From Flavivirga jejuensis (GTDB taxonomy: Bacteria; Bacteroidota; Bacteroidia; Flavobacteriales; Flavobacteriaceae), in assembly GCF_030540765.1 (NCBI RefSeq), contig NZ_JAUOEL010000003.1:310001-374000 (forward strand): a stretch of 64,000 nucleotides of DNA, in the 5' to 3' direction. This document shows positions 3,604 to 39,723 of this stretch, piece after piece (within the stretch, counting starts at the first letter, position 1; every line of letters starts with the position of its first letter). The translations under genes were made by a program, and so were the position numbers. Under the pieces are notes generated by a model. That model was not told the origin of the DNA. It did not search any database and saw only the letters and a list, made by a program, of their open reading frames with translations.

Positions 3604-5229
3604 TTAGTCAACTTCTAAACTGTGTTTGGCATAGTTAAGATTCATGGCATCATACATTTTCACCAAATGGTGTAAACGTTTTTGAAAATCGTTCCAGTTT
3701 CTGGACGCTTTAGAAGACCAAACCACTTCAGATAAAGCGGTTAACCTAGGCAGAACCATATATTCAACATATTCAGGTGTAGTCATATATTCTGTCCAAA
3801 CATTGCCTTGAGCTCCTAAAATATACTTTTTGTCAGCATCTGTTAATTCTTCTGGTGTTGGTTCGTAGTTATACACATCTTTAACGGTTGTTTTTCCGCC
3901 TATAGCAAGTGGTTCATTTTCTTTATCCTCAGTTTGATAATGATCAAAATAGCAAGAATGATGCGGTGTCATGACAACATTGTGTTTCTGTTTTGCAGCT
4001 TCAATACCTCCTTTTGTTCCTCGCCACGACATCACTGTAGCATTTGGTGCTAAACCACCTTCTAAAATTTCGTCCCAACCAATTATATTTCTTCCTTTTG
4101 AGTTTAAGAATTTTTCAATTCTTCTAATAAAATAACTTTGTAACTCATGCTCATCTTTTAGACCTTCGCGCTTAATAACTTCTTGTGCTAATGTACTTTC
4201 TTCCCATTGTGTTTTTGGTGCTTCATCACCTCCTATATGAATCAATTTACTTGGAAATAAATCTATAACTTCTTGCAGTACATTTTCTAAAAATTGAAAT
4301 GTTTCCTCACTAGGTGCATAAATTTCGGGAAATACCCCCCACCTTGTACCAACTTCATATTGCTCTCCAGTATTTCCTAATTCTGGATAAGCAGCAATCG
4401 CTGCCAATGAATGTCCTGGCAATTCAATTTCGGGTATAACAGTTACGTGTCTTTTTGCAGCATACGCTACAATATCTTTTATATCTTCTTGCGTATAATA
4501 ACCTCCATAGGGGGTACCATCATATTTAACATCTTTTGATTTCCATGTATTACCATGACCAACAATGGTTTCTTTTCTAATACTCCCCACACTGGTTAAC
4601 TTTGGGTATTTCTTTATTTCAATTCTCCAACCTTGATCTTCTGTTAAGTGCCAATGAAATGTATTCATTTTATGCATGGCAATTAAATCGATATACTTTT
4701 TTACAAATTCAACAGGAAAAAAATGACGCGCCACATCTAAATGCATCCCACGATAAACATATCTGGGACTATCATTTATTGTAACAGCAGGAATGGTTAA
4801 TTCATCTGTCTTATTGGTAGAAGACGACATTAATTGCTGCAAGGTCTGTATGCCATAAAAGACCCCTTGGGTTGTTTTTCCTGAAATTATAATCTGATTA
4901 TATGAAACCGATAATGTATAACCTTCATTATTTTCTATAGCAGCATCTAACTTTAAGATAATAGTACCCTCTGTACTTTCTCCTTTTCCAAAAGGAACCG
5001 AAACTCCTGTCGCTTTGCTCAATAAATCTGAGAGGTAATGCCCCTCATTCTCTAACTTAGAATCCCCACTTATTTTAGTGCTTTCATCTATTAAAAACCG
5101 TCCGTTAGACATTTCTAGTGCCGTTGGTTTTGGAATTATTTGATAATCTTCTTCTGAATTTACGGTGTTTTCGTACTTGTTAGAACAAGAAACAATTACA
5201 AGAGTTACTAAGAAAAATAGGGTTTTCAT
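3604..5229 (-). CDS. GH20 beta-N-acetylhexosaminidase, lipoprotein
   Basis: This 541-residue exo-enzyme would remove terminal beta-linked GlcNAc or GalNAc. The N-terminus (MKTLFFLVTLVIVSCSNK) is a lipoprotein signal with Cys15 as the likely lipidation site. The GH20b N-terminal domain spans about 28-150, and the catalytic TIM barrel starts at YRGMHLDVARHFF and runs to about 510. HIGGDEAPKTQW carries the catalytic pair Asp335-Glu336 of the substrate-assisted mechanism, and HWHLTEDQGWRIEI is a hallmark. It has the minimal two-domain size with no C-terminal module. It is the last gene of the operon, 21 bases after the next GH20, to which it is clearly paralogous. Likely role: trimming antennary GlcNAc from N-glycans in the periplasm or at the surface. 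Confidence 0.95.
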   Translation of the reverse strand: MKTLFFLVTLVIVSCSNKYENTVNSEEDYQIIPKPTALEMSNGRFLIDESTKISGDSKLENEGHYLSDLLSKATGVSVPFGKGESTEGTIILKLDAAIENNEGYTLSVSYNQIIISGKTTQGVFYGIQTLQQLMSSSTNKTDELTIPAVTINDSPRYVYRGMHLDVARHFFPVEFVKKYIDLIAMHKMNTFHWHLTEDQGWRIEIKKYPKLTSVGSIRKETIVGHGNTWKSKDVKYDGTPYGGYYTQEDIKDIVAYAAKRHVTVIPEIELPGHSLAAIAAYPELGNTGEQYEVGTRWGVFPEIYAPSEETFQFLENVLQEVIDLFPSKLIHIGGDEAPKTQWEESTLAQEVIKREGLKDEHELQSYFIRRIEKFLNSKGRNIIGWDEILEGGLAPNATVMSWRGTKGGIEAAKQKHNVVMTPHHSCYFDHYQTEDKENEPLAIGGKTTVKDVYNYEPTPEELTDADKKYILGAQGNVWTEYMTTPEYVEYMVLPRLTALSEVVWSSKASRNWNDFQKRLHHLVKMYDAMNLNYAKHSLEVD

Positions 5230-5250
5230 CTGTTATATATTTATTTTAAA

Positions 5251-7575
5251 TTAAAAAATCACCAATTCATCTAATAAAATTTTTGATGCAGTTCCAACCT
5301 TATGGTGTCCTTCGGGTATTGGATTGACTCTTCTCGCTTTTATTTTTAGAGCTTTTACCTTTGTTTTAGGGAAATCAAAAGTTGTTTTAACTTTATTGCG
5401 CCCTTGTGTATGGCTGGCTTCCATCTGATTTATTTCTGCTATTTTTTTAAATGACTTGCCATCTTCTGAAGCAGAAATCTCAACATATTCGGGAACATAA
5501 ATACCTGCAATGGTAAAACGTAAAAAATCTAATTCTACTTTGTTTATTTCTGTTATTTCTGGGAAATTTAATTCTACATCTAAATTATCATTAAAAGTTT
5601 TCCAGGGAGCATCCCATCTATTAAGTTTTCCATAATTCAAATCTATTAAAGCGTTTGTGGTGTCACTGATTTTTGGTGAATTGAAAACCAGAGAAGCTCC
5701 AAACCCTTTATGTACAGGAAAAAACTTTTGAGAGATATTACCAATTTGTTTTTCATTTAAAAATGTTGATGCTTTTAGTGTCGCCGTTTTATCAATTGAA
5801 AATTCATTCTCATATTTATTAGAGCTTAATGAAGGTGTGCTACCATCTAACGTATAATAAATATCTAGGTTCCCAACTTCCGATTTAAGCGTAATATCGA
5901 TACCGCCATTTTTATTCCCTTTATGGTCTATCCTAGCATTAAAAGCACTTGTAGCATATCTGGTGCCTCTTGCATCCAAACGTTCAAATTGAGTTAGTAA
6001 TCGTTTTGTAAAACCTTCCCAATCTTTTGATTTTTCAGTGATCCAACCATTCTCAGCAATGGCATAAAGCCTTGGAAAAGTCATGTAGGTTAACTTTCCA
6101 AAATCGCTAATAGACTCTGTCCATAAATTACCCTGTATGCCCATAACATGTTTACCTTGTTCTTCTGTTAAACTGTCTGAAATAATTTTATAATGATATG
6201 AATCTTTAAGAAAACTATAGCCGTACCCTAAATTTGGCTCCAAATCATCATCCCCTTGTTTCAAATCTAAATAACAATATTTAAAAGGCGTCATAATCAC
6301 ATCATGTCCTGCTCTGGCTGCAGTTATACCACCTTTTTCACCACGCCATGACATAACTGTTGCATTAGGTGCTAAACCTCCTTCTATAATTTCATCCCAA
6401 CCAATCATATTTTTACCTCGAGAATTAACCATTTTTTCTACACGCTTGATAAAATAACTCTGCAATTCATGCTCATTGGCTAAGTTTTCTTCTTTTATTC
6501 TTTGTTGACAATCGGGATCTATTTTCCAAGCTTCTTTATTACATTCGTCCCCTCCAATATGAATATATTCAAAGGGAAATAAATCTATGATCTCTTCAAG
6601 CACATCTTCAACAAACTCAAAAGTGACTTCTTTCCCAGGACAGTAAGTATTATTTTTAATAACGCCTCCTGTACCTACATAAAAAGGACCATCTGCACAT
6701 GCTATTTCGGGATAGGAAGCAATCGCCGCTAATGAATGCCCTGGCATATCAATTTCTGGAATTATTTCTATAAAACGCTCTTTGGCATAAGCGACAATTT
6801 CTTTAATATCATCTTGAGTATAAAATCCGCCATAAGTGGCTTTTTCTCCTTCTTTTTGAATGGGTCTTCCCCACCAATTAGATAAGCTTTCATCTGTAAT
6901 ATTATAATCAACGCGCCATGCACCAACTTCTGTTAACTTAGGATACTTTTTTATTTCAATCCGCCAACCCTGGTCGTCTGATAAATGCCAGTGAAATCGA
7001 TTTAATTTAATTTCTGCCATAAAATCAAGGGCATCTTTAACCTGCTCTTTATCAAAAAAATGACGAGACACATCTAACATATAACCACGCCACTTAAAAT
7101 TTGGTGCATCTTTAATACGAACAACGGGTACACCCCAAGAAACGTTAACCAATTGTTTTTTTGCATAAAACGAAGTGGGCAACAATTGTTTAAGTGATTG
7201 CAACGCGTAAAAGAAACCAGCTCCTGTGGCTGCTTTAATTTCTATTGTTGATTTTGTAACGTTTAGCTCATAAGCTTCCTCATGAAACGAACTATCGTTA
7301 ATTAATATGATATCACCTTTTTCTGTTCCTGTTTTCACTGAAGGTATCCAACCAGATACGACTTCAAATTGTTTAAAAAACCGATTAGCAATCATTGCTT
7401 GTGTTTCATTTTCTACAGATACTATCGTGTTTTTATTGATTTCAAAATAGCCTTCGCTAGGCGCGACCTCAACAGGCATTGGAATTAAAGAAACATCACC
7501 TAATTGTAGATTTTTTTTAGCGCATGAAACAAATATTAATAGACATACTAATATTAGGAATTTATGTATTTTCAT
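5251..7575 (-). CDS. GH20 beta-N-acetylhexosaminidase with C-terminal F5/8 type C-like module
   Basis: A lipoprotein signal (LLIFVSCAKK, Cys18) is followed by the GH20b domain and the GH20 barrel, with HWHLSDDQGWRIEI and the catalytic pair Asp343-Glu344 in HIGGDECNKEAW. After the barrel, residues about 545-615 form a chitobiase C-terminal-like beta-sandwich (IYYTLDGSTP). The last 150 residues look like a discoidin/F5/8 type C carbohydrate-binding fold (VELNFPEITEINKVELDFLR, ending VGTASKILLDELVIF). At 774 residues it is longer than its neighbour because of these modules, which probably hold it on a glycan or glycoprotein. Its ATG overlaps the stop of the upstream GH92 by four bases (ATGA), so translation is coupled. 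Confidence 0.95.
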   Translation of the reverse strand: MKIHKFLILVCLLIFVSCAKKNLQLGDVSLIPMPVEVAPSEGYFEINKNTIVSVENETQAMIANRFFKQFEVVSGWIPSVKTGTEKGDIILINDSSFHEEAYELNVTKSTIEIKAATGAGFFYALQSLKQLLPTSFYAKKQLVNVSWGVPVVRIKDAPNFKWRGYMLDVSRHFFDKEQVKDALDFMAEIKLNRFHWHLSDDQGWRIEIKKYPKLTEVGAWRVDYNITDESLSNWWGRPIQKEGEKATYGGFYTQDDIKEIVAYAKERFIEIIPEIDMPGHSLAAIASYPEIACADGPFYVGTGGVIKNNTYCPGKEVTFEFVEDVLEEIIDLFPFEYIHIGGDECNKEAWKIDPDCQQRIKEENLANEHELQSYFIKRVEKMVNSRGKNMIGWDEIIEGGLAPNATVMSWRGEKGGITAARAGHDVIMTPFKYCYLDLKQGDDDLEPNLGYGYSFLKDSYHYKIISDSLTEEQGKHVMGIQGNLWTESISDFGKLTYMTFPRLYAIAENGWITEKSKDWEGFTKRLLTQFERLDARGTRYATSAFNARIDHKGNKNGGIDITLKSEVGNLDIYYTLDGSTPSLSSNKYENEFSIDKTATLKASTFLNEKQIGNISQKFFPVHKGFGASLVFNSPKISDTTNALIDLNYGKLNRWDAPWKTFNDNLDVELNFPEITEINKVELDFLRFTIAGIYVPEYVEISASEDGKSFKKIAEINQMEASHTQGRNKVKTTFDFPKTKVKALKIKARRVNPIPEGHHKVGTASKILLDELVIF

Positions 7576-9800
7576 CTTTTTTGAAATAAATTTTTGTTCG
7601 GTTTATTGTCCAATATGAAATGAATTTCACCACCATCCAAAATTTGTTTGTGGCTTATAGTGGATTGATTATAAGGTGTTCCATTTAATAGTATTGCTTG
7701 TATATAACAGTTCTCTTTTGATTGGTTTTCTGTAGTTATTACAAACTGTTTTCCGTTTTCTAATTGAATAGTAGCTTCTTTTACAAAAGGAGATGTTAAA
7801 CTGTAAATACCATTGGCTGGATTTATAGGATACATTCCTATGGATGAAAATACTAACCATGCAGACATTTGTCCGCAATCTTCATTACCACAATACCCAT
7901 CAGGCTTAGTACTATATTGTGTGTTTATAATTCTACGAACCATTTCTTGGGTTTTCCATGGTTGCCCTATATTATTGTATAAATAAGACACATGATGACT
8001 TGGTTCATTACCATGAGCGTATTGTCCAATCATTCCCGTGCTGAATATTGGTAATTTATCTTCTGCTGTTGGATAATAAGTAAACATAGAGTCTAACTTT
8101 ACTGTAAATTGCTCTTCACCCAATGTATCTATCAAACCATCAATATCTTGCGGTACAAACCAGAAATATTGCCAGGCATTACTTTCACAAAATTCTCTGG
8201 TATACGCTTTCGCTGAAAAAGGATCACTAAACTTGCCTTCTTTACTTTTTGGTCGAAAAAATGTAGATTTAGAATCATACAAATTCTTCCAATTATTAGC
8301 TCTTTTTGAAAAAGTTTGCTTGATATCATCTTCACCTAAAGCCTCCGCTAATTGTGCAATACACCAATCGTTATAAGCATATTCCAATGTTTTTGAAACC
8401 GACCAACTTTCTCCTTCTTCAGACGTTGGCACGTATCCTAATTCCATATACAGATCTATTTGCCTCCCTTTTTCTGTTGCAGATGCAACACAAGCTTCCA
8501 ATGCTTTTTTAGCATCTAAAGGAATCCCTTTAAAATAAGCATCTACAATTACAGGAACAGCATGGTAACCAATCATCATATTGGTTTCGTTACCTGCTAA
8601 AGACCAAACGGGCAGTAAGCCTGTTTCATCGTAATGCGATAAAAAAGACTTGACCATATCCTCGGTTTCCTTAGGTGCTAAAATGGTATACAGGGGATGT
8701 GCAGCCCTAAACGTATCCCAAAGTGAAAAAGTATCGTATTTATTATAGCCTTCTGCTTTATGTACTTCGCCATCTGCTCCCTTGTAAAGTCCATCTACAT
8801 CACTATGTAATGACGGTGTTAAAAAAACATGGTACAAATTGGTGTAAAACAATTCTTTTTGTGATTTTGTTCCTTCAATCTTTATTTTAGAAAGATAGGT
8901 TTCCCAAACATTTTCTGCTTCTTGAATCGTTTGTTCAAAATTCCAATGTGGTAACTCTCTCTCTAAATTTTTACGAGCTCCAGCGATACTTACTGATGAT
9001 AAAGCTACTTTTACTTGTATTTTCTCTTGTTCTTGTGTTTTATAATTCGCAACAATACGAGTAAACTTTCCGTTTACTGTCTTAGCATCTTTTTCTTCTG
9101 AATTTTCAAATAGTTCTGCTTTATCAAAAGGTTTTGAGAATTTCATCACAAAATAAATACGTTGATCTCTTGCCCAACCTTTCGATTTTCTATACCCCGA
9201 AATGGTTTGGTTATCTTCAATCGTTATTTGTGTTGCTACTGGTGCATCCCAATTCAAGCTATACCCTAAATCAAGAATTATTTGACTTTTTTTATCTTCT
9301 GGAAACGTATATTGATGAAAGCCTACGCGTGCTGTTGTTGTTAATTCTGCTTTAATTCCTGAACTTAATAAATCAACCGAATAATACCCAGGACTTGCTT
9401 TTTCTTTATCGTGTGAAAATTTTGAGTAAGGCCTGTATGATCCCTCTGGAGTTAAACTCTCCGTAAATTTGCTGTTTAAAGGCATCACCAACAAGTCGTA
9501 CATATCACCCGCACCAGTACCCGAAAGGTGCGTATGGCTAAAACCTGCTATGGTAGAATCTGGCCAAAAATAGCCAGCTATTCTATCCCATCCTGGGAGT
9601 CCGTTATCTGGACTTAATTGTACCATTCCAAAGGGTAAAACAGCGCCTGGGTATGTATTACCTGGACCATCTGTTCCTGTAAAGGTATTTACATAACTAG
9701 TTAATCCCTTTATTTTTTTAGTTTCGGGTTTCTTTTCTGTTTTGCATGAAAAAAAACCTAAACATAATGTTAGTAATAATAGATAATTGTACCCCTTCAT
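7572..9800 (-). CDS. GH92 alpha-mannosidase, lipoprotein
   Basis: This is a 742-residue calcium-dependent exo-alpha-mannosidase of family GH92, which acts mostly on alpha-1,2, alpha-1,3 or alpha-1,6 mannose of N-glycans. The lipobox is LGFFSCKTEK. The family N-terminal beta-sandwich begins with YVNTFTGTDGPGNTYPGAVL and includes GFSHTHLSGTGAGD. The (alpha/alpha)6 domain has HGNEPSHH near residue 597 and GNEDCGQMSAW near 640, both hallmark catalytic-site loops. The linkage preference cannot be read with certainty. It shares the GNEPSHH loop with the GH92 at 51284, so the two may have the same specificity, while the GH92s at 19884 and 42957 differ. It sits between the GH67-like gene and two GH20 genes. 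Confidence 0.95.
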   Translation of the reverse strand: MKGYNYLLLLTLCLGFFSCKTEKKPETKKIKGLTSYVNTFTGTDGPGNTYPGAVLPFGMVQLSPDNGLPGWDRIAGYFWPDSTIAGFSHTHLSGTGAGDMYDLLVMPLNSKFTESLTPEGSYRPYSKFSHDKEKASPGYYSVDLLSSGIKAELTTTARVGFHQYTFPEDKKSQIILDLGYSLNWDAPVATQITIEDNQTISGYRKSKGWARDQRIYFVMKFSKPFDKAELFENSEEKDAKTVNGKFTRIVANYKTQEQEKIQVKVALSSVSIAGARKNLERELPHWNFEQTIQEAENVWETYLSKIKIEGTKSQKELFYTNLYHVFLTPSLHSDVDGLYKGADGEVHKAEGYNKYDTFSLWDTFRAAHPLYTILAPKETEDMVKSFLSHYDETGLLPVWSLAGNETNMMIGYHAVPVIVDAYFKGIPLDAKKALEACVASATEKGRQIDLYMELGYVPTSEEGESWSVSKTLEYAYNDWCIAQLAEALGEDDIKQTFSKRANNWKNLYDSKSTFFRPKSKEGKFSDPFSAKAYTREFCESNAWQYFWFVPQDIDGLIDTLGEEQFTVKLDSMFTYYPTAEDKLPIFSTGMIGQYAHGNEPSHHVSYLYNNIGQPWKTQEMVRRIINTQYSTKPDGYCGNEDCGQMSAWLVFSSIGMYPINPANGIYSLTSPFVKEATIQLENGKQFVITTENQSKENCYIQAILLNGTPYNQSTISHKQILDGGEIHFILDNKPNKNLFQKR

Positions 9801-9861: not shown

Positions 9862-11505
9862 TTAATTACTTCTTAATTTATTCACTTTAAGGTGGGCGTT
9901 ATTTGCAATATGCCTCTTGTATTCTTGTGTATAAAGTGTTGCTATTGAACTATATTTTTTTGCAAGTTTGTTGTAATCTTTCCATGCCTTATCATACGCT
10001 TTAATCCACTTTTTAACTTTTTTAGTGTCTCCTTTACCTTCAGCATGTTTCATATAGACAAGCGTTCTATATATTTTATACAATCTTAATCCATAGTCTG
10101 CAGATCCTATGGCATGATTTTTAGTGTCATCATTTTGCCAATCAATTGATTTAGCCAACTTAACTATTTCTTTCCATTTTGCTATCGATTCATCTTTTTG
10201 AACCAAATTTCTATCTTGTTCCAAGTCACCTTTTACTACCATTGGCCATGCAATCCCCTGGTCTCTAGTCCACCAAGGGTTCATATCTCTATAAGTACTA
10301 TTTCTACCTCTAACTACTGCTTCTGCAGAAAGTAAGCATAGCTTTCTAAACTTAGCAATATCATCTCCTTTTAAATTTAAGCGCTCTGTTGCATATCTGT
10401 TAAAAATAAATGCTTCACTTTTATCGGTGTTTTGCCCCCATTGTGCCATAACCCAAGAATTTAAATCGCACCACAATTCGTCTTTTACATAAGGTCCATC
10501 CCAGCCACCGCCACGAGACCATGTCCAAACGCCTGCATATAATTCGGGTGTTGTTTCAACAAATTCTTTAATACTATTAATACGCTCTTCTGGCATTCTG
10601 GCATGTTCCTCAAAACCTTCAATAACACCATTCGCAATATAATTAGGATAAGCACCTTTTCCTTCGTATTCGCGTGCAGATTGAACCTCAATGATTTGAC
10701 GATGACGCCCTTGGCCAATAACTTTACTAAATTCGTTTGATCTATGGAAATCCCCTTCGCAATGTTTGATACTAATAATTAAATTTTCATGTGGTTCTAT
10801 AGCATTACTTACTTTCATGTAAGCTTTTAGATTCCTATCAAATGCTCCCCATGTACGGAAAATAAGTTGTTTATCCCTTTTCTCACAAATCTCTTCTTTT
10901 AAGATCTTAATTAAAGGAATAATGGTTTTTTCTGGATTCATTTTCTCATCAATTGCTCCAAGATGATATGGTGCATCGTGCAAGTAGGTTTCTCCAATAC
11001 GAACCACCAAACCATCAAGGTCTGGGAACTGATCGAACATTTCATTAATTTGAGCTCTGACCAGTTTTTCGGTTAATGTATCATTAGGATTCCCAAAACT
11101 TTCTTGAATACCATACTTTTCAATCAACCTTTTAGGAAACAAAACAAGATCAGACATAGCATAAATAGCCGTATTTTGCTCTTTACATGCTGCATGCATT
11201 TGTTTTATTTGTTTGGCTTTTTCATCTACCCATTTACGATCATCAGATCCTTTAGGTAAAATATCTGCATCTACAGATTCCCAATTAATAGCTAATGCTG
11301 GAGATTCAAAAAGAAAATAAACCTTACCATTATATCCCATTTCTTTTATAATAGCTGGATTATTATACTTAGATTCATATGGCGCTTCACCAGGGTTATG
11401 ATGTACCATATCTAAAATTAAAGGAGCGGCATTAGTCTGATTCTGACCAATCGCTTTTATTCCTAAAACACAAAAAAATACTAAAATTACATTTAATTTA
11501 TTCAT
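9862..11505 (-). CDS. GH67-like (alpha-glucuronidase superfamily) TIM-barrel protein
   Basis: This 547-residue secreted protein has a signal peptide MNKLNVILVFFCVLGIKAIG. It does not belong to a family common in N-glycan loci. Its middle section can be laid on the catalytic barrel of GH67 alpha-glucuronidases: GLVVRIGE (compare GFVVKANSEG), FRTWGAF, IISIKHCEGDFH (compare QIKNGPLDFQ) and IIEVQSAREYEG (compare FQITQEYLGQ). These align Glu172, Asp252 and Glu279 with the three catalytic carboxylates known in GH67. The N-terminal GH67 domain is missing and the C-terminus is all-helical and Lys-rich. The match is by eye. Activity could be an exo-glycosidase on a uronic or neutral sugar, or an endo-acting N-glycan enzyme. 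It has 61 bases to the next gene. Confidence 0.6.
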   Translation of the reverse strand: MNKLNVILVFFCVLGIKAIGQNQTNAAPLILDMVHHNPGEAPYESKYNNPAIIKEMGYNGKVYFLFESPALAINWESVDADILPKGSDDRKWVDEKAKQIKQMHAACKEQNTAIYAMSDLVLFPKRLIEKYGIQESFGNPNDTLTEKLVRAQINEMFDQFPDLDGLVVRIGETYLHDAPYHLGAIDEKMNPEKTIIPLIKILKEEICEKRDKQLIFRTWGAFDRNLKAYMKVSNAIEPHENLIISIKHCEGDFHRSNEFSKVIGQGRHRQIIEVQSAREYEGKGAYPNYIANGVIEGFEEHARMPEERINSIKEFVETTPELYAGVWTWSRGGGWDGPYVKDELWCDLNSWVMAQWGQNTDKSEAFIFNRYATERLNLKGDDIAKFRKLCLLSAEAVVRGRNSTYRDMNPWWTRDQGIAWPMVVKGDLEQDRNLVQKDESIAKWKEIVKLAKSIDWQNDDTKNHAIGSADYGLRLYKIYRTLVYMKHAEGKGDTKKVKKWIKAYDKAWKDYNKLAKKYSSIATLYTQEYKRHIANNAHLKVNKLRSN

Positions 11506-11610: not shown

Positions 11611-13911
11611 TTAATAATTTGTTACGGCATTACTAATTGGTGTTAATGGGGTGCCCTGTATGGCATAGCTAACATCAATCATTTTAGGTTTTGTACTAGG
11701 TTTGTAATGTATGGTTATGGGGTGTAATCCTTTTTTTAAGGCTACTTTTCCATACTTTTTACGTGGACCATGATACCCGCCATTGTCTACAATGATCTCA
11801 TCACCAATAAATAATAAATTTCCTCCATCCGAACGTGTTTCAAATTCGTAAATAGCATCTTTTTCCGCTTTAAAATAACCTTGGTAGATCATTGAAAAGT
11901 TTTTTTCATTTTTTAAATCTCCCAATGCAACACGATCTACTTTAGTAAAATTATTAGTGGTAGGCGTTTTAATAGCTTCAACCTTTTTGAACTGCCCTTT
12001 GGTTATCCATCTTTTTAACCCCGTTTCTTTAGGGTTAACATTTACAGCTTCCTTATAGTCTTTGCGAATCACTTTAGTCGTTTTTAAGTCGTTAAACTTG
12101 TCACCACGGTATGCACGAGCTTTGATTTCAACAGTATCTTTTACAGTAAATGGCGCTTCGTATTTTAAAGAGGTCTTCGTTGGTATACTTCCATCTAGTG
12201 TATAATATATTTCTACGCCATCTAACAAATATGCTAAGTTTAAATTCACGGATGTATTGTCTACAAAAGCAATATCTTTTTCTAAACCTTCAACGGCAGG
12301 AATGTAATAGTACACCCCTAAAACATCCAATCTATCGTACTGCTTTTCAACGCTATTGTTAAACAGTTCAAAATCTTTATTCCCCTTTGAAGTCCAAGCA
12401 TTTTCTGCTACTGCTAACATTCTAGGAAACGCTTGATACTGTAAACGTTTAAAACTTGGGATTCGTTCTGACCATAAGTTTGCTTGAATTCCTAAAACAT
12501 GCTCAGATTCTGCTTCTGTAAAATCTTCAGGAATGGGTTCATAGTTGTACACCCTTTCTAGCGTGGTTCCTTCATTTAAATAATCAAAATAATAAGCTGC
12601 TGTAGTCGTTACCACAACATTATTCCCGTTTGCTGCAGCTATTTTAGGAGCATCTGGAGCCCAATTTCTCCACCACATTACATTGGCATCTTTGGTTAAT
12701 CCGCCTCTTACAATTTCATCCCATCCCATAAATTGCTTTCCTTTGGATTGTAAAAACTGTTCTATATCTCTATTGAAAAATGACTGCAGTTCGTGTTCGT
12801 CTTTTAAACCATTATCTTTAATAGCTTTTTGGCAATGTGGGCATTTTTCCCAAGATTTAATATTGACTTCGTCGCCTCCAATGTGAATATATTCTGCAGG
12901 AAATAATTCTACCACTTCACTCAGTACATTTTTCATAAACTCATACGTCGTATCTTTTCCTAAACAGGTTGGATAAGTAAAAACAGTATCCCAACCCGAT
13001 TCTTCATTACAAGATAAAAACGGATAATTATCTATTGCCGATTTAAAATGACCAGGCATATCAATTTCGGGAATAACCGTGATACATCTATCATCTGCAT
13101 AAGCAATAATTTCTTTAATCTGGTCTTGAGTAAAAAAACCGCCATACTTACGTTCGCCATCAATCTCTTTAAAGTTTGATTCGTCTATGGTATAAAGCTT
13201 ATTTTCTTTTGCTCTATCCATACAAATAGTATCTTGATTGTTTGGAATTCTCCAAGCCCCTTTTTCTGTTAATAAAGGATATTTTTTTATTTCAATACGC
13301 CATCCTTGATCATCTGTCAAGTGCATGTGATAGGTATTTAACTTATACAATGCCATGTAATCTAAAAAATCTTTGACTTCATCTATATTGAAAAAATGAC
13401 GACTAAAATCCATATGCATCCCACGCCACTCAAAACGAGGTTCATCTTCAACAACGGCGCAAGGTACAAACCATTCTGAAGCTGTTTTTTCTTTACTTTC
13501 TATCGCTGTTGGTAATAACTGACGGATGGTTTGAACGGCATTAAAAAAACCATGTTCTTCTGAAGCTTTTATATGTATTGAATTCGGAGTTACTTCTAAT
13601 TTATAAGCGCCTTCTTTTAAACCTTCTACGGTTTCAAAAACTACAGCATCATCTGTTTTAGTATTTAAAACCTGTAAATCATACCCTGCCGCTTTTTTAA
13701 ATAATCCGATTAAATAATTAGCCGCTTTTTGTTGGCTTTCATCTTGAAGTACCATTTTTGTATCAGACTCAAACTGAAATGAGCTTTCTTTTAATTGAAA
13801 ACTCACGGGCTTAGGAAGCAATGAAATGTGTTCTTGTTTAAAAGTAGGTTTGGTGTTAGAGCATGCCCCTAACATGAATGTAATTAGTAATAAAACAGTA
13901 TATTTTTTCAT
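11611..13911 (-). CDS. GH20 beta-N-acetylhexosaminidase with C-terminal PA14-like module
   Basis: This is a 766-residue lipoprotein (FMLGACSNTK, Cys17). After the GH20b domain comes the barrel, with FEWRGMHMDFSRHFF, YHMHLTDDQGWRIEI and catalytic Asp347-Glu348 in HIGGDEVNIKSW. Where the paralogues have HWHL it has HMHL, a change in the substrate pocket. Residues about 545-615 form a chitobiase C-terminal-like sandwich (IYYTLDGSIPT). The last 100 residues (about 655-755) match a PA14 domain (YQGYFKAEKDAIYEFETRSD, LFIGDEIIVDNGG, HPITIHY), a likely glycan-binding module. It starts two bases after the stop of the beta-helix gene. The different pocket and module suggest a linkage or sulfation state not served by the other three GH20 enzymes. 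Confidence 0.93.
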   Translation of the reverse strand: MKKYTVLLLITFMLGACSNTKPTFKQEHISLLPKPVSFQLKESSFQFESDTKMVLQDESQQKAANYLIGLFKKAAGYDLQVLNTKTDDAVVFETVEGLKEGAYKLEVTPNSIHIKASEEHGFFNAVQTIRQLLPTAIESKEKTASEWFVPCAVVEDEPRFEWRGMHMDFSRHFFNIDEVKDFLDYMALYKLNTYHMHLTDDQGWRIEIKKYPLLTEKGAWRIPNNQDTICMDRAKENKLYTIDESNFKEIDGERKYGGFFTQDQIKEIIAYADDRCITVIPEIDMPGHFKSAIDNYPFLSCNEESGWDTVFTYPTCLGKDTTYEFMKNVLSEVVELFPAEYIHIGGDEVNIKSWEKCPHCQKAIKDNGLKDEHELQSFFNRDIEQFLQSKGKQFMGWDEIVRGGLTKDANVMWWRNWAPDAPKIAAANGNNVVVTTTAAYYFDYLNEGTTLERVYNYEPIPEDFTEAESEHVLGIQANLWSERIPSFKRLQYQAFPRMLAVAENAWTSKGNKDFELFNNSVEKQYDRLDVLGVYYYIPAVEGLEKDIAFVDNTSVNLNLAYLLDGVEIYYTLDGSIPTKTSLKYEAPFTVKDTVEIKARAYRGDKFNDLKTTKVIRKDYKEAVNVNPKETGLKRWITKGQFKKVEAIKTPTTNNFTKVDRVALGDLKNEKNFSMIYQGYFKAEKDAIYEFETRSDGGNLLFIGDEIIVDNGGYHGPRKKYGKVALKKGLHPITIHYKPSTKPKMIDVSYAIQGTPLTPISNAVTNY

Positions 13912-13913: not shown

Positions 13914-16022
13914 TTATTTTTTTAATTTCATGTTTTCCTGTACAGTATTATCAAAATTCTGAGTCACCGAAATTGGTAATTTGGCTTTTTCAACCCATTC
14001 GTTATCACCATAAACGCCAGATTTTGAATAGTCAAATGGAATGAAATTTATTTTAGTATAATTTTTTTTATTTATGAATCTAAAATCAGCATTCAAAGGA
14101 TCTTTGAAGTTTGGGTTGACTAATAAACTGTGTAAATCAAACTCTTTTTTTTGCCAATTTTTGAAAGTATGCCCATTAAAATCGTATTTCTTTCCATTGG
14201 AATTCCAATAAATATTTTGATCTATTCTCGCTATAACATCATTCCAACCCCCTTTTAAAACCATACCTTCATTAAATATTACGATGTTATTAGTAAAAGC
14301 AAAAGACTCGTGTTTCTCTGGAATATTGCATTGTAGTTGGTATCTTTTTGCATATGCCAATATGTTGTTTTTTACGATATTTTCTTTACCATAATTTTGT
14401 TGAAACCCACCCGTTTTGGTATGGTACACTAAATTATTTTTAAAAACAATTCCTGTTGAACCTTCATCGGCATACATGCCCCAACCTCCATAGGAATAAG
14501 CGTGGATATCGTGAATTACATTGTTTTCGATACGCGTTCCTTCAGATTCTCCAAGGGTATAAATACCTGCCATGTCGCTTAACAAATCCCATCCAATATG
14601 ATGGATATGATTGTAAGCTATGGTATTTCGTTTTGCAAGACTAGGTTTATAACCCCAAACCCAGCCTACTGAGACTCCCGTATAATAGAAGTTACCAATA
14701 TCGTTATGCGTTACCTTATTATCTGAACTATGCCCTACCCAAACACCTACAGCAGGTGGAAACTCCAGACCTCCAGACTGTATGATATTATTATTGATAT
14801 TGATGTGATGTGTGTGCTCTTTTCCTTTTAAAGGCTTAAAATCTCCCAGATAAACACCCCCACCACCAAGATCGTGCATATAAGTATTCTCTACTAGGGA
14901 GTTACTACATCCTTTACCAAACCACAAGGCATGCTGCCCCGTTTTAGAAATTTCACAATTAGAAAATGTTATATTTTTCACACCTTCTGCATAAATAGCC
15001 GCATTTAGTATGGCAGCTGCTTGGTTGGGTTCTGAACCTGTTTTTGGTATTTCGTAATGACAATACTCAAAGTTTAAACCTTCAAAATGAATATTCTTTA
15101 CATAATTATCCTGTAATGCGTTTCCTTTTATTAGTACCAGTTGTTCCAATACTGGAGCAACTACCGTGGTGTTCTCTAAAGTTTCGTTAGGTCTTGGCAC
15201 ATAATATAAGATTCCTTTTTTACTTAAAAACCACTCACCAGGTGTATCTAAAGCAGCCTTATAGTTTTCAAAAACAATGCGACCACCTTTCTTTATTTGG
15301 TTCCATGGCTTCATGCCTTTACCCGAAGTCGTTATTAACAAGCTGTCTTTATCTAGGGCATCAATGTGTCGTAACGTATAATCCCATTTGTGATATGCTT
15401 TAAACCTGACCTCACGCACTTCGTCTTCGGTAATTGGTGATAAAGATTCAAACATGTCTTTTTCAAAAAACAATTTTTGCTGAGCCTTTTTCGCTACTCT
15501 ACTATTACCTTTCTCCCATATATTTTGCTGTACGGAATCAATTTCTAAAAACCCCTCATTAGGGGTTCGAGCTAAAACAGCTCTTTTTCCATTCACATAT
15601 AATTGATCAAATTGCCATTTGTAATAAACACTTTCTGTAATTTTAACTTCCCAAATACCTTTTTCATTTACAGAAAATCCAGTGATTGTTTTTCCTCCGC
15701 TAAAAACAGGTGCTGCGTTTTTTGCAGCTTTATAGGTAATCGGGAATTTTTCGGTACCACTATCTTCGGGAGCTAATTCAAAAGGTTCTTTCATGGTATA
15801 ATTACCATTTTCGACAATTACCGTATAGGATTGCCGTTTGCTTGAAGTTATTTTATGCGCTCGTATGGTATTACGTGCACCATTCAAACTTGCTAAAGGT
15901 GCTTCTTTAGTACCAGAATTCATATCACTTCCTGTTGGTGAAACATAAAATCTCTGTTGAGCTTTTAAAGATAAGCTACAACAAAATAACAGACTTAGTA
16001 TATAAATATTTTTTATCAACAC
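13914..16022 (-). CDS. Right-handed parallel beta-helix protein, GH141-like
   Basis: This 702-residue secreted protein has the signal peptide MLIKNIYILSLLFCCSLSLKA. It opens with RFYVSPTGSDMNSGTKEAPL, the DUF1565-type start of many beta-helix polysaccharide enzymes. The centre consists of helix coils rich in Asn and Gly (NNIIQSGG, VTHNDIGNFYYTGVSVGW, NTIAYNHIHHIGWDLLSDMA, IENNVIHDIHAYSYGGWGMY). The overall plan of a signal, an N-terminal beta domain, the helix and a short tail is like GH141 (alpha-L-fucosidase and xylanase activities known), but GH120 and lyases share the fold, so the call is to the fold rather than the activity. In a locus with two GH29 and a GH95, a fucosidase role is plausible. 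Its stop lies 2 bases before the GH20 start. Confidence 0.7.
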   Translation of the reverse strand: MLIKNIYILSLLFCCSLSLKAQQRFYVSPTGSDMNSGTKEAPLASLNGARNTIRAHKITSSKRQSYTVIVENGNYTMKEPFELAPEDSGTEKFPITYKAAKNAAPVFSGGKTITGFSVNEKGIWEVKITESVYYKWQFDQLYVNGKRAVLARTPNEGFLEIDSVQQNIWEKGNSRVAKKAQQKLFFEKDMFESLSPITEDEVREVRFKAYHKWDYTLRHIDALDKDSLLITTSGKGMKPWNQIKKGGRIVFENYKAALDTPGEWFLSKKGILYYVPRPNETLENTTVVAPVLEQLVLIKGNALQDNYVKNIHFEGLNFEYCHYEIPKTGSEPNQAAAILNAAIYAEGVKNITFSNCEISKTGQHALWFGKGCSNSLVENTYMHDLGGGGVYLGDFKPLKGKEHTHHININNNIIQSGGLEFPPAVGVWVGHSSDNKVTHNDIGNFYYTGVSVGWVWGYKPSLAKRNTIAYNHIHHIGWDLLSDMAGIYTLGESEGTRIENNVIHDIHAYSYGGWGMYADEGSTGIVFKNNLVYHTKTGGFQQNYGKENIVKNNILAYAKRYQLQCNIPEKHESFAFTNNIVIFNEGMVLKGGWNDVIARIDQNIYWNSNGKKYDFNGHTFKNWQKKEFDLHSLLVNPNFKDPLNADFRFINKKNYTKINFIPFDYSKSGVYGDNEWVEKAKLPISVTQNFDNTVQENMKLKK

Positions 16023-16040
16023 TTTTATGCTTTACAACAT

Positions 16041-18512
16041 TTAATGATTTAGGCGCCACTCAATATCGCCGTTTTCAAGACTCCAATCATGACCAAAATA
16101 ACCAGCTACTTCTACATGCTCAATTCCGTTTTGGTATAATGATGGTGTAAAAATCATCATATCTGGAATATCAGCTCCAGATCCAAAATATTTGTTAGGT
16201 GTTACTGCTTTAAAGCCCAACATTCCAGAACCAGAAACAACTCCTACTAATGCTGTTTTGCTATCTTTTCTTGGATAAGTAAAATAGACTCCAAATTCCG
16301 TTCCTTTTAACTTTTTCTGTCCAATTTTAACCTCATTGCGTTTAACCTGAATGGGAGCTTTTGATAGAAGTGATTTCCAAGCAGCATTCGTTGTGGCATT
16401 ACCATAAAGAATAACCGACCTATCTTTAAATTTAGAAAGTGAAAATTCTTTATCTGAAATAATATCTATAGAACCATTGCCTCTATAATAAAAGGTTTCG
16501 GCATCAAACCGTGCTTTATTAAAAGCCCACTGGTTTTCTTCTTTTGTCCCTTTGGTAGCATACACAAAAAGCATATTGTTTTTAAAGGCTTCCTTGAAAT
16601 GGCCATATCTCAATGGATTTTTTTCAAAAGTATTTTCTGGTTTTTCAGTAAGTGCCCACACGCCGTTTTCTTTTTCGAACCAAACATCTTTTCCTTTATA
16701 AGATGCTAAATTAGCAAAAACGTTCTCATCAACTTTAATTTGAACAGTATCTGAACTTATACAATGTTTTAAATCGACTTTAAACTTCTTTAAATTTTCT
16801 GTTTCAATAGTAATTGATCTCTTTTTTAGAACGTCATTTTTTTTCTTTTGCTTATCAGTTCTAACATTTTGGCTCACTTTTACTCCACAAAACTCAAATT
16901 GCTTTTCTTGTTGATACACTGTCACATAGCGACTTTCTGAAGAAACTCCCGGACGTGCTGTACGAAACTCAAAATTTTTAACATCACCATTATCTGGAAT
17001 AGTATGCCATTTAAAATAATCGAATATGTTGCTAAAATCTATTCCAAACCAATGCTTTTTATCTTCATATTCATAGTATGCAAAATCGGGATGAAATTCG
17101 CTTAAATGCTTTCGCATAAATCTTGCTTGTTCTACAGATACGACATCATCTGCATCGCCATGCTGAATATAAACACCATGATGTAAATAATTTTTTGATA
17201 ATTCTAAAGTATAGCTTGCATGACTCGCACTAGCTAACATATTTTCCATTGGCGATGGATTTTCTTCTTTTTCTTTATTAGCATAAGAAAACAAAGAATA
17301 CCACCCTGCTATTGGAGAAATGGCGGCCCATTTGTTTGGGAATGTAGCGCCTATTTGCCAGGTCCCATGACCTCCCATAGAATGTCCTGTTAAATACGTA
17401 CGACTTGGATCTGTTCCATACATTTTTTCTGCTATTTCTTGTACTTCCATAGCATCCCATCGGCCCCAATCTTCCCAGTTAAAACCGTAGTCTCTTCTGT
17501 TGGTGGGTGCAATAACATGTCCCCAGTCTTTTGCTTTATATTGAACAGCCTGATTTCTTGCTTCTACATTAGCACCATGCAATGAAAGGAACATGGCTGG
17601 TTTTTTATCAGACGCTATAACGCCTTCTCTAACCGAAAAATATTGTAAACTTCCATCTATTTTTGATATAAATGTCCTTGAATAACGCTCTTGAGGTGTT
17701 CTTACATGATATAAAATAGCGCTTTCATCTAATAACTTTGAACCTTCATATAGTTTAACAGAAACTCTTACGGTGTCTTTTTCTGTGTAATTATCTTGTA
17801 CTTTATAAGGCACTTTTCGCATGGCTAACGGAATGATAGTTGGTACCTTTGTTTCTAGTACAGTTCCATTAGATTCTGATACTATCCTCAGGTTTTTTTG
17901 CGCTTTTCCTGTCGCATTTAATATTCGAATAGACCCCATTTTAACATCACTTTCAGTAGTGATAAAATCGGCTTTTGTCATATCTCTTTTTAATAAAGAA
18001 ATCGGTTTTTTAACAGGCAATAATGTCATGTTAACTTGCCCTCTGCCTCCTTTTACTAAAAAGGTGTTTTCTCCTTGTATTAATTCTATAGGATGAAAAA
18101 CCAAATGTTTGTTATATACATCTCCACCACGAGGAATACCATTTACAAATAGTTCTGAATGACCAGAGACTTCAAGGATTTTAATCCCTGCTTTTGGTGC
18201 ATTATAAGTAACATATAAATAGCCGCCGCGCAATTTTCTACTTCTAAAAACGTCCTTTTCATCAGCTTTTATCTTTTCCCACCGTTGTACATCTCCTTGT
18301 CTGTTAACGCCAACAGAATCATTTTCAATGGGTTTTGAAAAACTGTTTGTAATGAACTTATGAAACACAGGGTTTGTGAAAATAATAGAACGCCTACCTT
18401 TTTCTGTAGAACCAACCACTAAACCTTCTTTTAAAACAATAGTATCCTGCGCGTTAAGTTCGATTCCAAAAAACGTAATGGCTATAAAAACTAAAAAACG
18501 GTACTTTACCAT
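16041..18512 (-). CDS. Prolyl-oligopeptidase-type alpha/beta hydrolase, probable carbohydrate esterase
   Basis: This 823-residue secreted enzyme has the signal MVKYRFLVFIAITFFGIELNA. The N-terminal 270 residues are beta-rich (LEVSGHSELFVNGIPRGGDV resembles a carbohydrate-binding sandwich). Residues about 300-520 form an alpha/beta hydrolase of the S9/esterase-D type: FLSLHGANVEAR, the nucleophile elbow GHSMGG with Ser378, IQHGDADDVVSVEQARFM for the acid, and KKHWFG for the His. The last 300 residues are beta-rich and unassigned. In polysaccharide loci such proteins are usually deacetylases or other esterases acting on decorated sugars, sometimes peptidases. Here it could remove O-acetyl groups that block the fucosidases or hexosaminidases. 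The substrate is inferred. Confidence 0.75.
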   Translation of the reverse strand: MVKYRFLVFIAITFFGIELNAQDTIVLKEGLVVGSTEKGRRSIIFTNPVFHKFITNSFSKPIENDSVGVNRQGDVQRWEKIKADEKDVFRSRKLRGGYLYVTYNAPKAGIKILEVSGHSELFVNGIPRGGDVYNKHLVFHPIELIQGENTFLVKGGRGQVNMTLLPVKKPISLLKRDMTKADFITTESDVKMGSIRILNATGKAQKNLRIVSESNGTVLETKVPTIIPLAMRKVPYKVQDNYTEKDTVRVSVKLYEGSKLLDESAILYHVRTPQERYSRTFISKIDGSLQYFSVREGVIASDKKPAMFLSLHGANVEARNQAVQYKAKDWGHVIAPTNRRDYGFNWEDWGRWDAMEVQEIAEKMYGTDPSRTYLTGHSMGGHGTWQIGATFPNKWAAISPIAGWYSLFSYANKEKEENPSPMENMLASASHASYTLELSKNYLHHGVYIQHGDADDVVSVEQARFMRKHLSEFHPDFAYYEYEDKKHWFGIDFSNIFDYFKWHTIPDNGDVKNFEFRTARPGVSSESRYVTVYQQEKQFEFCGVKVSQNVRTDKQKKKNDVLKKRSITIETENLKKFKVDLKHCISSDTVQIKVDENVFANLASYKGKDVWFEKENGVWALTEKPENTFEKNPLRYGHFKEAFKNNMLFVYATKGTKEENQWAFNKARFDAETFYYRGNGSIDIISDKEFSLSKFKDRSVILYGNATTNAAWKSLLSKAPIQVKRNEVKIGQKKLKGTEFGVYFTYPRKDSKTALVGVVSGSGMLGFKAVTPNKYFGSGADIPDMMIFTPSLYQNGIEHVEVAGYFGHDWSLENGDIEWRLNH

Positions 18513-18533
18513 AAGACATTCTATTCTAATTAT

Positions 18534-19847
18534 TTATTTGATTTTAAGCTTCAAAACGGTGTCTATTGTATCGTTTGAATCCATTTTTGTGTAAAGAAAA
18601 GTGCCTTCTTTTAACTGTTTAAACTTAATTTTTGTTTTACCATCAAAAGATGTTGCAGAAGTAATTTTTTCTTTTAGCTCTGGTATAAAAATGTAAGGTT
18701 CTTTGGTAGGGTTTAATATATGTACATACAATACCTTATCTTTTTTTGTTATGGTGCCCCATTTTTGAGTTTTAATAACATTTCCTCTTGTTCCGTATAC
18801 GCTTTCCCCATATTTAGTTGTCCATGCTCCAACTTCTTTTAATGTTTGCACAAATTCAGGTTGAATTTCGCCATTAGGCATCGGGCCAACATTTAATAGT
18901 AAATTGCCATTTTTCCCTGCAGCATTCACTAAAAAATGAATAAGCTGTTTTGTGGATTTGTATTTTTTATCATTCAAATTAAAACCCCACGATTTAGCCA
19001 TGGTCGCACAAGATTCTAATGGCAGTTGACTTACTTTAACGCCTTTGCTATATCCGCCTTTATTCTCACCTGGTAAATCTCTTTCAAAAGTTTGAATATC
19101 TTCTCCAGGAATAGGTGTTAAATGGTGGTTGTTTGCTATTAAAGTACTTGGGCTTAATTCGTGAATTAATGAATAGATCTCATTATAGCGCCAATCTGCT
19201 TTTTTTCGTTCCCAATGGCCATCAAACCAAATACAGCCAATTTCACCATAATTAGTAAGCAATTCTGTTAATTGCGCTTTCATAAACGCGATATATTTAT
19301 CCCAATCTGCATCAACAGGCTTCCCGTCTACTATTTTATGTCCGAAACCATAATCTTCTCTGGCCCAATCTAACAAAGAGTAATAAAAATTTAATTTGAT
19401 GCCTTCTTTTTTACAGGCTTCGGCTAATTCTTTTAAAGGGTCTCTATCAAATCGTGTGGCATCTATAATATCATAATCTGTAGCCTTAGAGTCAAACATG
19501 CTAAAACTATCATGATGACGCGAGGTAATGGTAATGTATTTCATGCCCGCAGATTTTGCTATTTGTACCCATTCTTCGGCATTAAAATCTTGAGGATTAA
19601 AAAACTTAGTCAGTTTTTTATAAGTATCATTCTTAATTTTTTGCTGATACATCACCCATTCTCCATCACCTAAAACACTATAGATTCCCCAGTGAATAAA
19701 CATACCAAATTTCATGTCTTGAAATTCCTGACGGCTTTCTAGGTTACCAGCAGTTGGTGTATACTCTGGCATGGGATAAGCATAATCTTGAGCATTAGCG
19801 CTAAAGAATATTAAACTCAATAAGCATAGTAGTCCTAATTTCTTCAT
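18534..19847 (-). CDS. GH29 alpha-L-fucosidase
   Basis: This 437-residue secreted retaining fucosidase has the signal peptide MKKLGLLCLLSLIFFSANA. Hallmarks are KFGMFIHWGIYSV at about 47-58, ITSRHHDSFSMFDS at about 108-121, NFYYSLLDW and WFDGHW, with Asp209 as the probable nucleophile. The barrel is followed by a short C-terminal sandwich; the LLLNVGPMPNGEI segment is a family marker. The compact size matches GH29 members without extra modules. Specificity could be alpha-1,3/1,4 branches or core fucose of N-glycans. It lies 21 bases from the esterase gene and 36 bases from the GH92 gene. The GH29 at 38059 is quite different in sequence, so the two probably serve different fucose linkages. Confidence 0.93.
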   Translation of the reverse strand: MKKLGLLCLLSLIFFSANAQDYAYPMPEYTPTAGNLESRQEFQDMKFGMFIHWGIYSVLGDGEWVMYQQKIKNDTYKKLTKFFNPQDFNAEEWVQIAKSAGMKYITITSRHHDSFSMFDSKATDYDIIDATRFDRDPLKELAEACKKEGIKLNFYYSLLDWAREDYGFGHKIVDGKPVDADWDKYIAFMKAQLTELLTNYGEIGCIWFDGHWERKKADWRYNEIYSLIHELSPSTLIANNHHLTPIPGEDIQTFERDLPGENKGGYSKGVKVSQLPLESCATMAKSWGFNLNDKKYKSTKQLIHFLVNAAGKNGNLLLNVGPMPNGEIQPEFVQTLKEVGAWTTKYGESVYGTRGNVIKTQKWGTITKKDKVLYVHILNPTKEPYIFIPELKEKITSATSFDGKTKIKFKQLKEGTFLYTKMDSNDTIDTVLKLKIK

Positions 19848-22214: not shown

Positions 22215-22239
22215 ATAGGCATCTTATTCTTTTATGATA

Positions 22240-23727: not shown

Positions 23728-23731
23728 CTTC

Positions 23732-25603: not shown

Positions 25604-25644
25604 TTGATTTATTTTCTGAAGGCATTTCATGTATTATTCTTTTT

Positions 25645-27075: not shown

Positions 27076-27081
27076 AATGTA

Positions 27082-29763: not shown

Positions 29764-29771
29764 CCGTCTTA

Positions 29772-31142: not shown

Positions 31143-31148
31143 ACTGCT

Positions 31149-33476: not shown

Positions 33477-33581
33477 TCCCGTATTCTGTATTAATTTTAT
33501 GAATTTGTTCATTTATCGGTATCAATTAATTTTAATAGTTCCCTTAGTTTATAATCTTTTATTTGATTAATAATGATGACC

Positions 33582-33812: not shown

Positions 33813-33816
33813 TTTT

Positions 33817-39717: not shown

Positions 39718-39723
39718 TATATA

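What the first reader, a model, noticed from the sequence alone, without database searches (positions are those of the whole stretch)
9862..11505. GH67-like hydrolase inside an N-glycan-type locus
The central barrel aligns by eye with GH67 alpha-glucuronidases, including Glu172, Asp252 and Glu279 at the catalytic positions, yet the N-terminal GH67 domain is missing and no other gene points to glucuronoxylan. This may be a new family or a new activity, for example removal of a uronic acid or an endo-type cleavage of N-glycans.
Basis: partly seen in the sequence, partly recalled or inferred. Interest (0 to 1): 0.7.

Follow-up and report, generated by a model that had tools for sequence, protein, structure and literature searches.

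The report
Divergent alpha-glucuronidase in marine glycan locus
A gene in a marine bacterium's glycan-digesting locus most likely makes an enzyme that snips a terminal sugar acid off sulfated, fucose-bearing glycans; it looks like a distant relative of a known xylan-trimming enzyme family, and its activity still has to be tested.

Summary
The ORF at 9862-11505 (minus strand, 547 aa) is a (beta/alpha)8 protein whose nearest structural and profile relatives are GH67 alpha-glucuronidases. The three carboxylates (E172, D252, E279) are invariant in the family, as are three basic residues (R169, R217, K247) aligned with conserved GH67 positions that I recall as contacting glucuronate. The GH67 N-terminal domain is absent. 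I read it as an exo-acting, inverting alpha-uronidase of a divergent GH67-related family, not an endo-enzyme of N-glycans. One relative (37-40% identity) sits directly upstream of RraA-like, glucuronate isomerase (UxaC), SDR, Nramp-like and mannonate dehydratase (UxuA) genes. The family occurs in two settings: a GH20/GH92 glycoprotein-glycan locus (this window, with a glycosylasparaginase), and loci with GH95 and sulfatases. A strict screen found one position that separates the two groups, in the C-terminal region, so both probably cut the same bond. A review reports glucuronic acid on fucose in marine mollusc N-glycans, a plausible but unproven target. Not shown: activity, anomer, uronic acid identity, acceptor sugar, and whether CAZy already lists the family. 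Novelty: new variant of a known kind.

The parts
9862..11505 (-). GH67-related putative exo-alpha-uronidase, 547 aa
   Evidence: ORF; fold hits GH67; profile match to GH67
11443..11505 (-). hydrophobic N-terminal segment, probable signal peptide (about residues 1-21), by eye
   Evidence: sequence itself; beta-1 of the barrel starts at residue 29, so no room for a GH67 N-terminal domain
10990..10992 (-). codon of E172, candidate general acid after beta-4
   Evidence: invariant in 31 rows; strand 165-169; one column off the GH67 Glu; loop of low confidence
10750..10752 (-). codon of D252, candidate general base after beta-6
   Evidence: aligned with GH67 Asp; strand 242-247
10669..10671 (-). codon of E279, candidate general base after beta-7
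   Evidence: aligned with GH67 Glu; strand 269-275
10999..11001 (-). codon of R169, aligned with an invariant GH67 Lys, on beta-4
10855..10857 (-). codon of R217, aligned with an invariant GH67 Arg, on beta-5
10765..10767 (-). codon of K247, aligned with an invariant GH67 Lys, on beta-6
11611..13911 (-). GH20 with PA14; an orthologue lies in 14 of 14 type-A loci
7572..9800 (-). GH92; an orthologue lies in 10 of 14 type-A loci
3604..7575 (-). two further GH20 genes (3604-5229, 5251-7575)
13914..19847 (-). beta-helix protein, S9/esterase-like protein, GH29
   Evidence: recurring upstream block in type-A loci
19884..45203 (-). rest of the degradation locus: GH92 x2, sulfatases x5, GH20, GH30, GH3 x2, GH95, GH29
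45208..46218 (-). glycosylasparaginase (cleaves the GlcNAc-Asn bond of N-glycans)
   Evidence: PF01112; E about 1e-116 to solved bacterial glycosylasparaginases
46223..53623 (-). GHL10-like, CBM9-like, GH130, SSF symporter, GH92
54536..63083 (-). GlcN6P isomerase + PIG-L fusion, MFS transporter, SusD, SusC

Best explanation
The gene encodes a secreted (probably periplasmic) exo-alpha-uronidase of a divergent, GH67-related family. One sugar acid, most likely alpha-D-glucuronic acid, enters a pocket at the C-terminal face of the barrel, its carboxylate and hydroxyls held by R169, R217 and K247. E172, on a mobile loop after beta-4, protonates the leaving oxygen while D252 or E279 activates water for a single-displacement (inverting) attack. 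In this locus it uncaps terminal uronic acid from sulfated, fucosylated glycoprotein glycans so that GH29/GH95, GH20 and GH92 enzymes can proceed. A paralog does the same in a fucosidase/sulfatase-rich locus. Free glucuronate is used through the UxaC/UxuA pathway encoded elsewhere in the genome. Shown: homology, conserved residues, gene neighbourhoods. Inferred: activity, mechanism, export, uronic acid identity and acceptor.
For: GH67 is the top fold match for the query (ranks 1-11, E 2.9e-13 to 2.8e-11) and for a distant member (37-40% identity) modelled separately (ranks 1-5; its 16 alignment rows are all among the 20 used for the query, so the two are not fully independent). hhalign E is 3.2e-4 for GH67 against at best 0.0076 for 11 other families. 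Aligned pairs are R169/Lys, R217/Arg, K247/Lys, D252/Asp, E279/Glu; all six query residues, E172 included, are invariant in 31 distinct family rows. E172, D252 and E279 follow beta-4, beta-6 and beta-7. The member in L041 is followed by RraA-like, UxaC (E 9.8e-192), SDR, Nramp-like and UxuA (E 1.4e-50) genes. The window's genome has a UxaC gene, in a block with UxuA-like and SDR genes, and no canonical GH67. The next fold match is GH138, which I recall as an alpha-galacturonidase. The window locus has a clear glycosylasparaginase with four GH20 and four GH92.
Against: Sequence identity to GH67 is only 19% over 278 columns, and hhalign's own probability is 39%. E172 is one column off the GH67 Glu in the alignment, and the loop at 171-180 is modelled at low confidence (pLDDT 52). 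TM-scores to GH67 are moderate (0.57-0.59) with large rmsd (6.7-8.9 A), and 0.48-0.49 for the second model. No UxaC or UxuA homologue was found in the DNA held (up to 10 kb a side) around 29 type-A and type-B loci, so that hint rests on one relative. No activity data were seen, and the glucuronate contacts of GH67 are recalled, not read. In the passages I read that state an anomer for glucuronic acid on invertebrate N-glycans, it is beta, which a GH67-type enzyme should not cut.
Confidence: 0.7

Rival explanations
1. Same scaffold and inverting exo mechanism, but a different terminal sugar: alpha-galacturonic acid (as GH138) or another alpha-linked acidic or sulfated sugar.
For: GH138 structures rank 12-14 in the fold search. 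The family is too far from GH67 for specificity to be carried over. Loci hold sulfatases (10 of 14 type A, 10 of 15 type B) and some hold rhamnosidase or GH43 genes.
Against: R169, R217 and K247 align with GH67; no such alignment to GH138 was made. The family profile finds GH67 but not GH138 among PDB sequences at E<=10. UxaC/UxuA next to L041 fits glucuronate; galacturonate also enters through UxaC (recalled), so this does not decide.
Confidence: 0.17
2. A hexosaminidase-like or endo-acting N-glycan enzyme (GH84/GH20/GH163-like, substrate-assisted).
For: GH84 and GH20 structures follow GH67 and GH138 in the fold list, and GH84 follows GH67 directly for the second model. Type-A members sit with a GH20 gene in 14 of 14 loci. 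GH20 is the second-best profile match (E 0.0076).
Against: No adjacent acid pair at the end of beta-4: the residue before E172 is an invariant glycine. No relation to GH163 (E 0.11). Type-B loci lack GH20 (0 of 15), yet the enzymes keep the same candidate active-site residues. GH84 was not compared by profile.
Confidence: 0.05
3. An ordinary GH67 acting on xylan-derived aldouronic acids that merely lost its N-terminal domain.
For: Shared fold and catalytic residues. Two GH3 and one GH30 gene lie in the locus, and the GH30 has a weak match to a xylobiohydrolase (3.3e-17).
Against: No GH10, GH11, GH115 or UxaC match in the window. The query misses the Pfam GH67M cut-off and has no GH67N or GH67C match. 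Neighbours point to N-glycans or sulfated fucose-bearing glycans; a GH3 beta-xylosidase of plant N-glycans is known (PMC9522356, passages read), so GH3 does not imply xylan.
Confidence: 0.05
4. A catalytically dead binding protein.
For: Nothing positive.
Against: All six putative active-site residues are invariant across 31 distinct rows that come from several phyla.
Confidence: 0.03

Closest known systems
GH67 alpha-glucuronidases (C. japonicus 1gqi/1h41, G. stearothermophilus 1mqq)
   Same: (beta/alpha)8 barrel; aligned Asp and Glu, a Glu at the end of beta-4, three aligned basic residues; top fold and profile match
   Different: no N-terminal domain, GH67C not recognised, 11-19% identity, no clear xylan setting, 547 aa against 677-767 in the ten canonical ORFs
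GH138 (6hze/6hzf, rhamnogalacturonan II)
   Same: second-best fold match; recalled as an exo-alpha-galacturonidase
   Different: no sequence match; pectin substrate according to the PDB title
GH115 alpha-glucuronidases
   Same: same broad fold; alpha-uronidase activity (PMC3879575, passages read); one GH115 structure at rank 48 for the second model
   Different: no profile relation (E 0.35); GH115 active-site residues are not those of GH67 according to PMC3879575, whereas here most are
GH84 / GH20 beta-hexosaminidases
   Same: related barrel; GH20 is a gene neighbour
   Different: no adjacent acid pair at beta-4 (recalled motif); GH20 profile match weaker than GH67; GH84 profile not tested
GH163 (DUF4838) endo-beta-N-acetylglucosaminidases
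   Same: also act on N-glycans (recalled)
   Different: no profile relation (E 0.11); no DUF4838 match in the window's genome at E<=0.001

Membership tests
GH67 | Middle (beta/alpha)8 domain scoring over Pfam PF07488 cut-off | tested here: inconclusive
   query 17.4 of 23.5 bits; 16 of 20 members hit at E<=0.1; 3 of 9 scanned singly pass
GH67 | N-terminal domain PF03648 | tested here: not met
   no match at E<=1; barrel starts at residue 29; control L046 matches
GH67 | C-terminal domain PF07477 | tested here: not met
   no match at E<=1, although helices 344-546 follow the barrel and the fold alignments to GH67 run over 570-595 columns, gaps included
GH67 | Catalytic Glu (beta-4), Asp (beta-6), Glu (beta-7); roles recalled | tested here: met
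   invariant in 31 rows; Asp and second Glu aligned, first Glu off by one column; strand ends
GH67 | Three basic residues aligned with GH67 (role in glucuronate binding recalled) | tested here: met
   R169/K, R217/R, K247/K
GH67 | Release of (4-O-methyl-)glucuronic acid from aldouronic acids with inversion | not testable with these tools
   needs assay
GH163 | DUF4838 domain | tested here: not met
   no Pfam match; hhalign E 0.11
GH115 | PF15979 domain | tested here: not met
   no Pfam match; hhalign E 0.35
GH84/GH20 | adjacent acid pair at the end of beta-4 (recalled) | tested here: not met
   invariant Gly171-Glu172-Thr173
GH138 | sequence relation to 6hze/6hzf | tested here: not met
   no match of the family profile at E<=10 in PDB sequences; fold similarity only

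The most novel reading that the evidence does not exclude
A new glycoside hydrolase family whose members remove alpha-linked glucuronic acid from (sulfated) fucose, an epitope shared by mollusc-type marine N-glycans and glucuronated algal fucans. One duplicated enzyme would thus serve both an N-glycoprotein locus and a fucan-type locus in the same bacterium.
Probability: 0.22. Interest if true: 0.7.

Novelty: new variant of a known kind. Interest (0 to 1): 0.47.

Why it matters
[quoted passage not shown] passages read). The search listings (titles and abstract starts) name no bacterial alpha-uronidase family tied to N-glycans; the library is open-access only. If the reading is right, this is a rare GH67-related family with a defined candidate active site and two natural settings. 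It would add a tool for anionic N-glycans and fucans, and would explain how bacteria get past uronic acid caps on such glycans.

Tried and rejected
Endo-type or hexosaminidase function: rejected on missing acid pair, profile scores and type-B settings. GH163 and GH115 membership: rejected on profile comparison. Canonical GH67 on xylan: disfavoured by setting and domain content. A subgroup-specific active-site signature that would tell type A from type B was looked for with a strict screen (at least 90% of A, at least 70% of B, at most 20% of B sharing the A residue); one position, 515, passed. Uronate catabolism genes close to types A and B: 0 of 29 loci for UxaC and UxuA homologues in the DNA held (L030 and L031 hold only 4.2 and 5.9 kb). 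The wider region of the L044 member showed nothing informative. PDB sequence search with the single query found nothing. The promoter/terminator scan gave no usable result: 19 promoter-like sites where shuffles give 9.9, no terminator. A heparinase-like lyase label for the type-B loci was dropped as a group feature: the 3 of 15 loci so labelled match a 910-aa reference with no Pfam match at 1e-5, and only another protein of the C12 locus scores PF07940. Literature on fucoidan linkage (passages) gave no anomer or branching detail, so glucuronic acid alpha-linked to fucose in fucoidan is recalled only. Two papers cited for the mollusc linkages are not held, so the anomer there stays unknown to me. 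The model coordinates are not exposed, so carboxylate distances were not measured.

Full report
What is there. The ORF 9862-11505 (minus strand, 547 aa) lies in a long same-strand gene cluster. 33 of the 34 ORFs of at least 150 aa were scanned with Pfam; the partial ORF at the left edge was left out. The cluster holds four GH20, four GH92, two GH29, one GH95, two GH3, one GH30, five sulfatases, GH130, a beta-helix protein, an S9/esterase-like protein, SusC/SusD, an SSF and an MFS transporter and a glucosamine-6-phosphate isomerase/PIG-L fusion. An Asparaginase_2 protein matches solved bacterial glycosylasparaginases at about 1e-116, which is strong support for N-glycoprotein glycans. No Pfam match to GH18, GH85, GH163, PNGase, GH10, GH11 or GH115 was seen (E<=1e-5 for most ORFs). 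The GH30 matches glucosylceramidases best and a xylobiohydrolase weakly. GH3 enzymes include a beta-xylosidase of plant N-glycans (PMC9522356, passages read). The window lies in a 6.0 Mb genome whose nearest named hit is Flavivirga aquimarina (93%).

The family. A scan of genome contigs gave 28 loci at 61-93% identity, mostly Flavobacteriaceae with one Marinifilaceae, and Kiritimatiellota, Verrucomicrobiota and a Lentisphaeria bin. The window's genome has a 77% paralog, and another genus of the same family has two distant members (37-46%). Members were found in 3 of 149 relatives and in 2 of 395 genomes drawn from the phylum (E<=1e-10), the window's own genome among them each time, so the family is rare.

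Relation to GH67. The single query is sub-threshold for Pfam GH67M (E 0.0025) and finds nothing in the PDB. As a family the link is firmer. 16 of 20 members hit GH67M at E<=0.1, best 1.8e-6. Of 9 scanned singly, L025, L028 and L030 pass the curated cut-off, while L003, L044 and L006 have no hit. The family profile finds only GH67 in the PDB, weakly (E 0.048-0.062). Against an HMM of ten canonical GH67 proteins taken from relatives, all 20 members score above the best of 1000 shuffles, two of them only just. hhalign against GH67 gives E 3.2e-4 over 278 columns at 19% identity. The same comparison gives 0.0076 for GH20, 0.11 for GH163, 0.35 for GH115 and 0.037 or worse for eight other locus families (GH3, GH30, GH95, GHL10 and the S9-like protein were single sequences, so these controls are thin). 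The hhalign probability for GH67 is only 39%, so the sequence evidence alone is moderate.

Structure. The AlphaFold2 model (20-row alignment; mean pLDDT 82.4, pTM 0.84) is a complete (beta/alpha)8 barrel with strands at 29-34, 60-64, 113-118, 165-169, 213-217, 242-247, 269-275 and 323-331, followed by a helical C-terminal region. The barrel starts directly after the probable signal peptide, so the GH67 N-terminal domain is absent. Foldseek places GH67 at ranks 1-11 (E 2.9e-13 to 2.8e-11), then GH138, then GH84 and GH20 entries and a human N-acetyl-alpha-glucosaminidase. A second model, of the distant member L003 (mean pLDDT 74.0, pTM 0.74; all 16 alignment rows shared with the first), again has GH67 at ranks 1-5, followed by GH84. 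TM-scores to GH67 are moderate (0.57-0.59 and 0.48-0.49). E172, D252 and E279 lie just after strands 4, 6 and 7. The loop at 171-180 has mean pLDDT 52. In GH67 the catalytic acid also sits on a highly mobile loop (PMC3879575, passages read).

Active site. hhalign pairs R169/Lys, R217/Arg, K247/Lys, D252/Asp and E279/Glu with columns that are invariant in the ten canonical GH67 proteins; E172 falls one column from the invariant Glu. That these GH67 positions correspond to K288, R325, K360, D365, E393 and E292 of the C. japonicus enzyme, and that the basic ones contact glucuronate, is recalled; an E292A mutant in complex with aldotriuronic acid appears in a PDB title. All six query residues are invariant in 31 distinct family rows. 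The residue before E172 is an invariant glycine, so the adjacent acid pair that I recall for GH20/GH84 is missing.

Gene neighbourhoods. Among 14 type-A loci (L007-L018, L032, L034) an orthologue of the upstream GH20 occurs in 14 of 14, of the downstream GH92 in 10 of 14, of the GH29 in 8 of 14, of the beta-helix protein in 10 of 14, a sulfatase in 10 of 14 and a GH95 in 0 of 14. Among 15 type-B loci (L019-L031, L033, L039) GH20 occurs in 0, GH92 in 1, GH95 in 10, sulfatases in 10 and GH29 in 4. Labels come from blastp to window and C12-locus proteins, in the DNA held (up to 10 kb a side; L030 and L031 hold only 4.2 and 5.9 kb, and their proteins are near-copies), and were checked by Pfam for a sample only. 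The short loci L001, L002, L004, L005 and the distant members were not in these counts. Some loci of either type also carry alpha-rhamnosidase or DUF2961 genes, and some type-A loci a GH43 (a sample), so the glycan is not uniform. In a tree of 32 rows the type-A members form one group (97/94) among the type-B members (L006, L007 and L031 not included). Only position 515 separates the two types in a strict screen. The simplest reading is one activity used in two substrate settings.

The functional hint. The distant member in L041 (37-40% identity) follows SusC/SusD and directly precedes RraA-like, UxaC, SDR, Nramp-like and UxuA genes. UxaC and UxuA belong to the hexuronate pathway. L042, with the other distant member, has SDR genes, an enolase-superfamily gene and a GH3, which is compatible but not decisive. 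The window's genome has a UxaC gene next to UxuA-like and SDR genes, and a GH115 about 28 kb away, but no canonical GH67. No UxaC or UxuA homologue was found around the 29 type-A and type-B loci, so the hint rests on one relative.

Substrate. A review states that glucuronic acid modifies antennal fucose on N-glycans of the marine snail Volvarina rubella and the mussel Mytilus edulis, and that more sulfation seems to occur in marine settings (PMC6994554, passages read; snail and sulfation also in PMC7616688, passages). Fucosidase and sulfatase genes are the common features of the two locus types. I therefore rank a glucuronosyl-fucose or a similar uronic acid cap as the likeliest target. The anomer in those mollusc glycans was not in the passages read, and insect N-glycans in the same passages carry beta-linked glucuronic acid, which a GH67-type enzyme should not cut.

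Verdict. As to GH67 membership, catalytic and basic residues are met, but the N- and C-terminal Pfam domains are not and the curated score is met by few members, so I call it a GH67-related family and not a GH67 member. It works like GH67 with probability about 0.7. The listings in the held open-access papers showed no description of such a family. CAZy itself could not be consulted, so a family number may already exist.

Noticed in passing
window 46223-47329: GHL10/DUF4015 hydrolase-like protein with no convincing solved relative by sequence (best E 0.27); since no GH18, GH85, GH163 or PNGase match was seen in the window, it is a candidate for the missing endo- or core-cleaving enzyme.
   Followed up: partly
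window 54536-56464: Fusion of a glucosamine-6-phosphate isomerase domain with a PIG-L deacetylase domain in one ORF.
   Followed up: no
window 2008-3177: Caspase-domain (Peptidase_C14) protein at the end of the glycan locus.
   Followed up: no
window 551-2023: 490-aa ORF next to the caspase-like gene with no Pfam match at E<=0.001.
   Followed up: no
L039 8772-10718: 648-aa protein without a Pfam match at E<=1e-5 beside the paralog; it or a relative occurs in 4 of 15 type-B loci, L039 itself included.
   Followed up: partly
L011 679-2328, L032 11666-13360, L021 13603-15231: DUF2961 proteins recur near both type-A and type-B members; I recall GH172 as this domain.
   Followed up: partly
L010 7727-9937, L014 7719-9980, L026 11626-13410: Alpha-rhamnosidase genes beside the family gene; a rhamnose cap on a uronic acid would make a neat order of attack.
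   Followed up: no
L073 5525-8500 and L074 13244-19496 (own genome, contig C1): GH115 gene and, about 28 kb away, a uronate block: SDR, UxuA-like and UxaC, followed by three ORFs that look like a TRAP-type transporter (by eye).
   Followed up: partly
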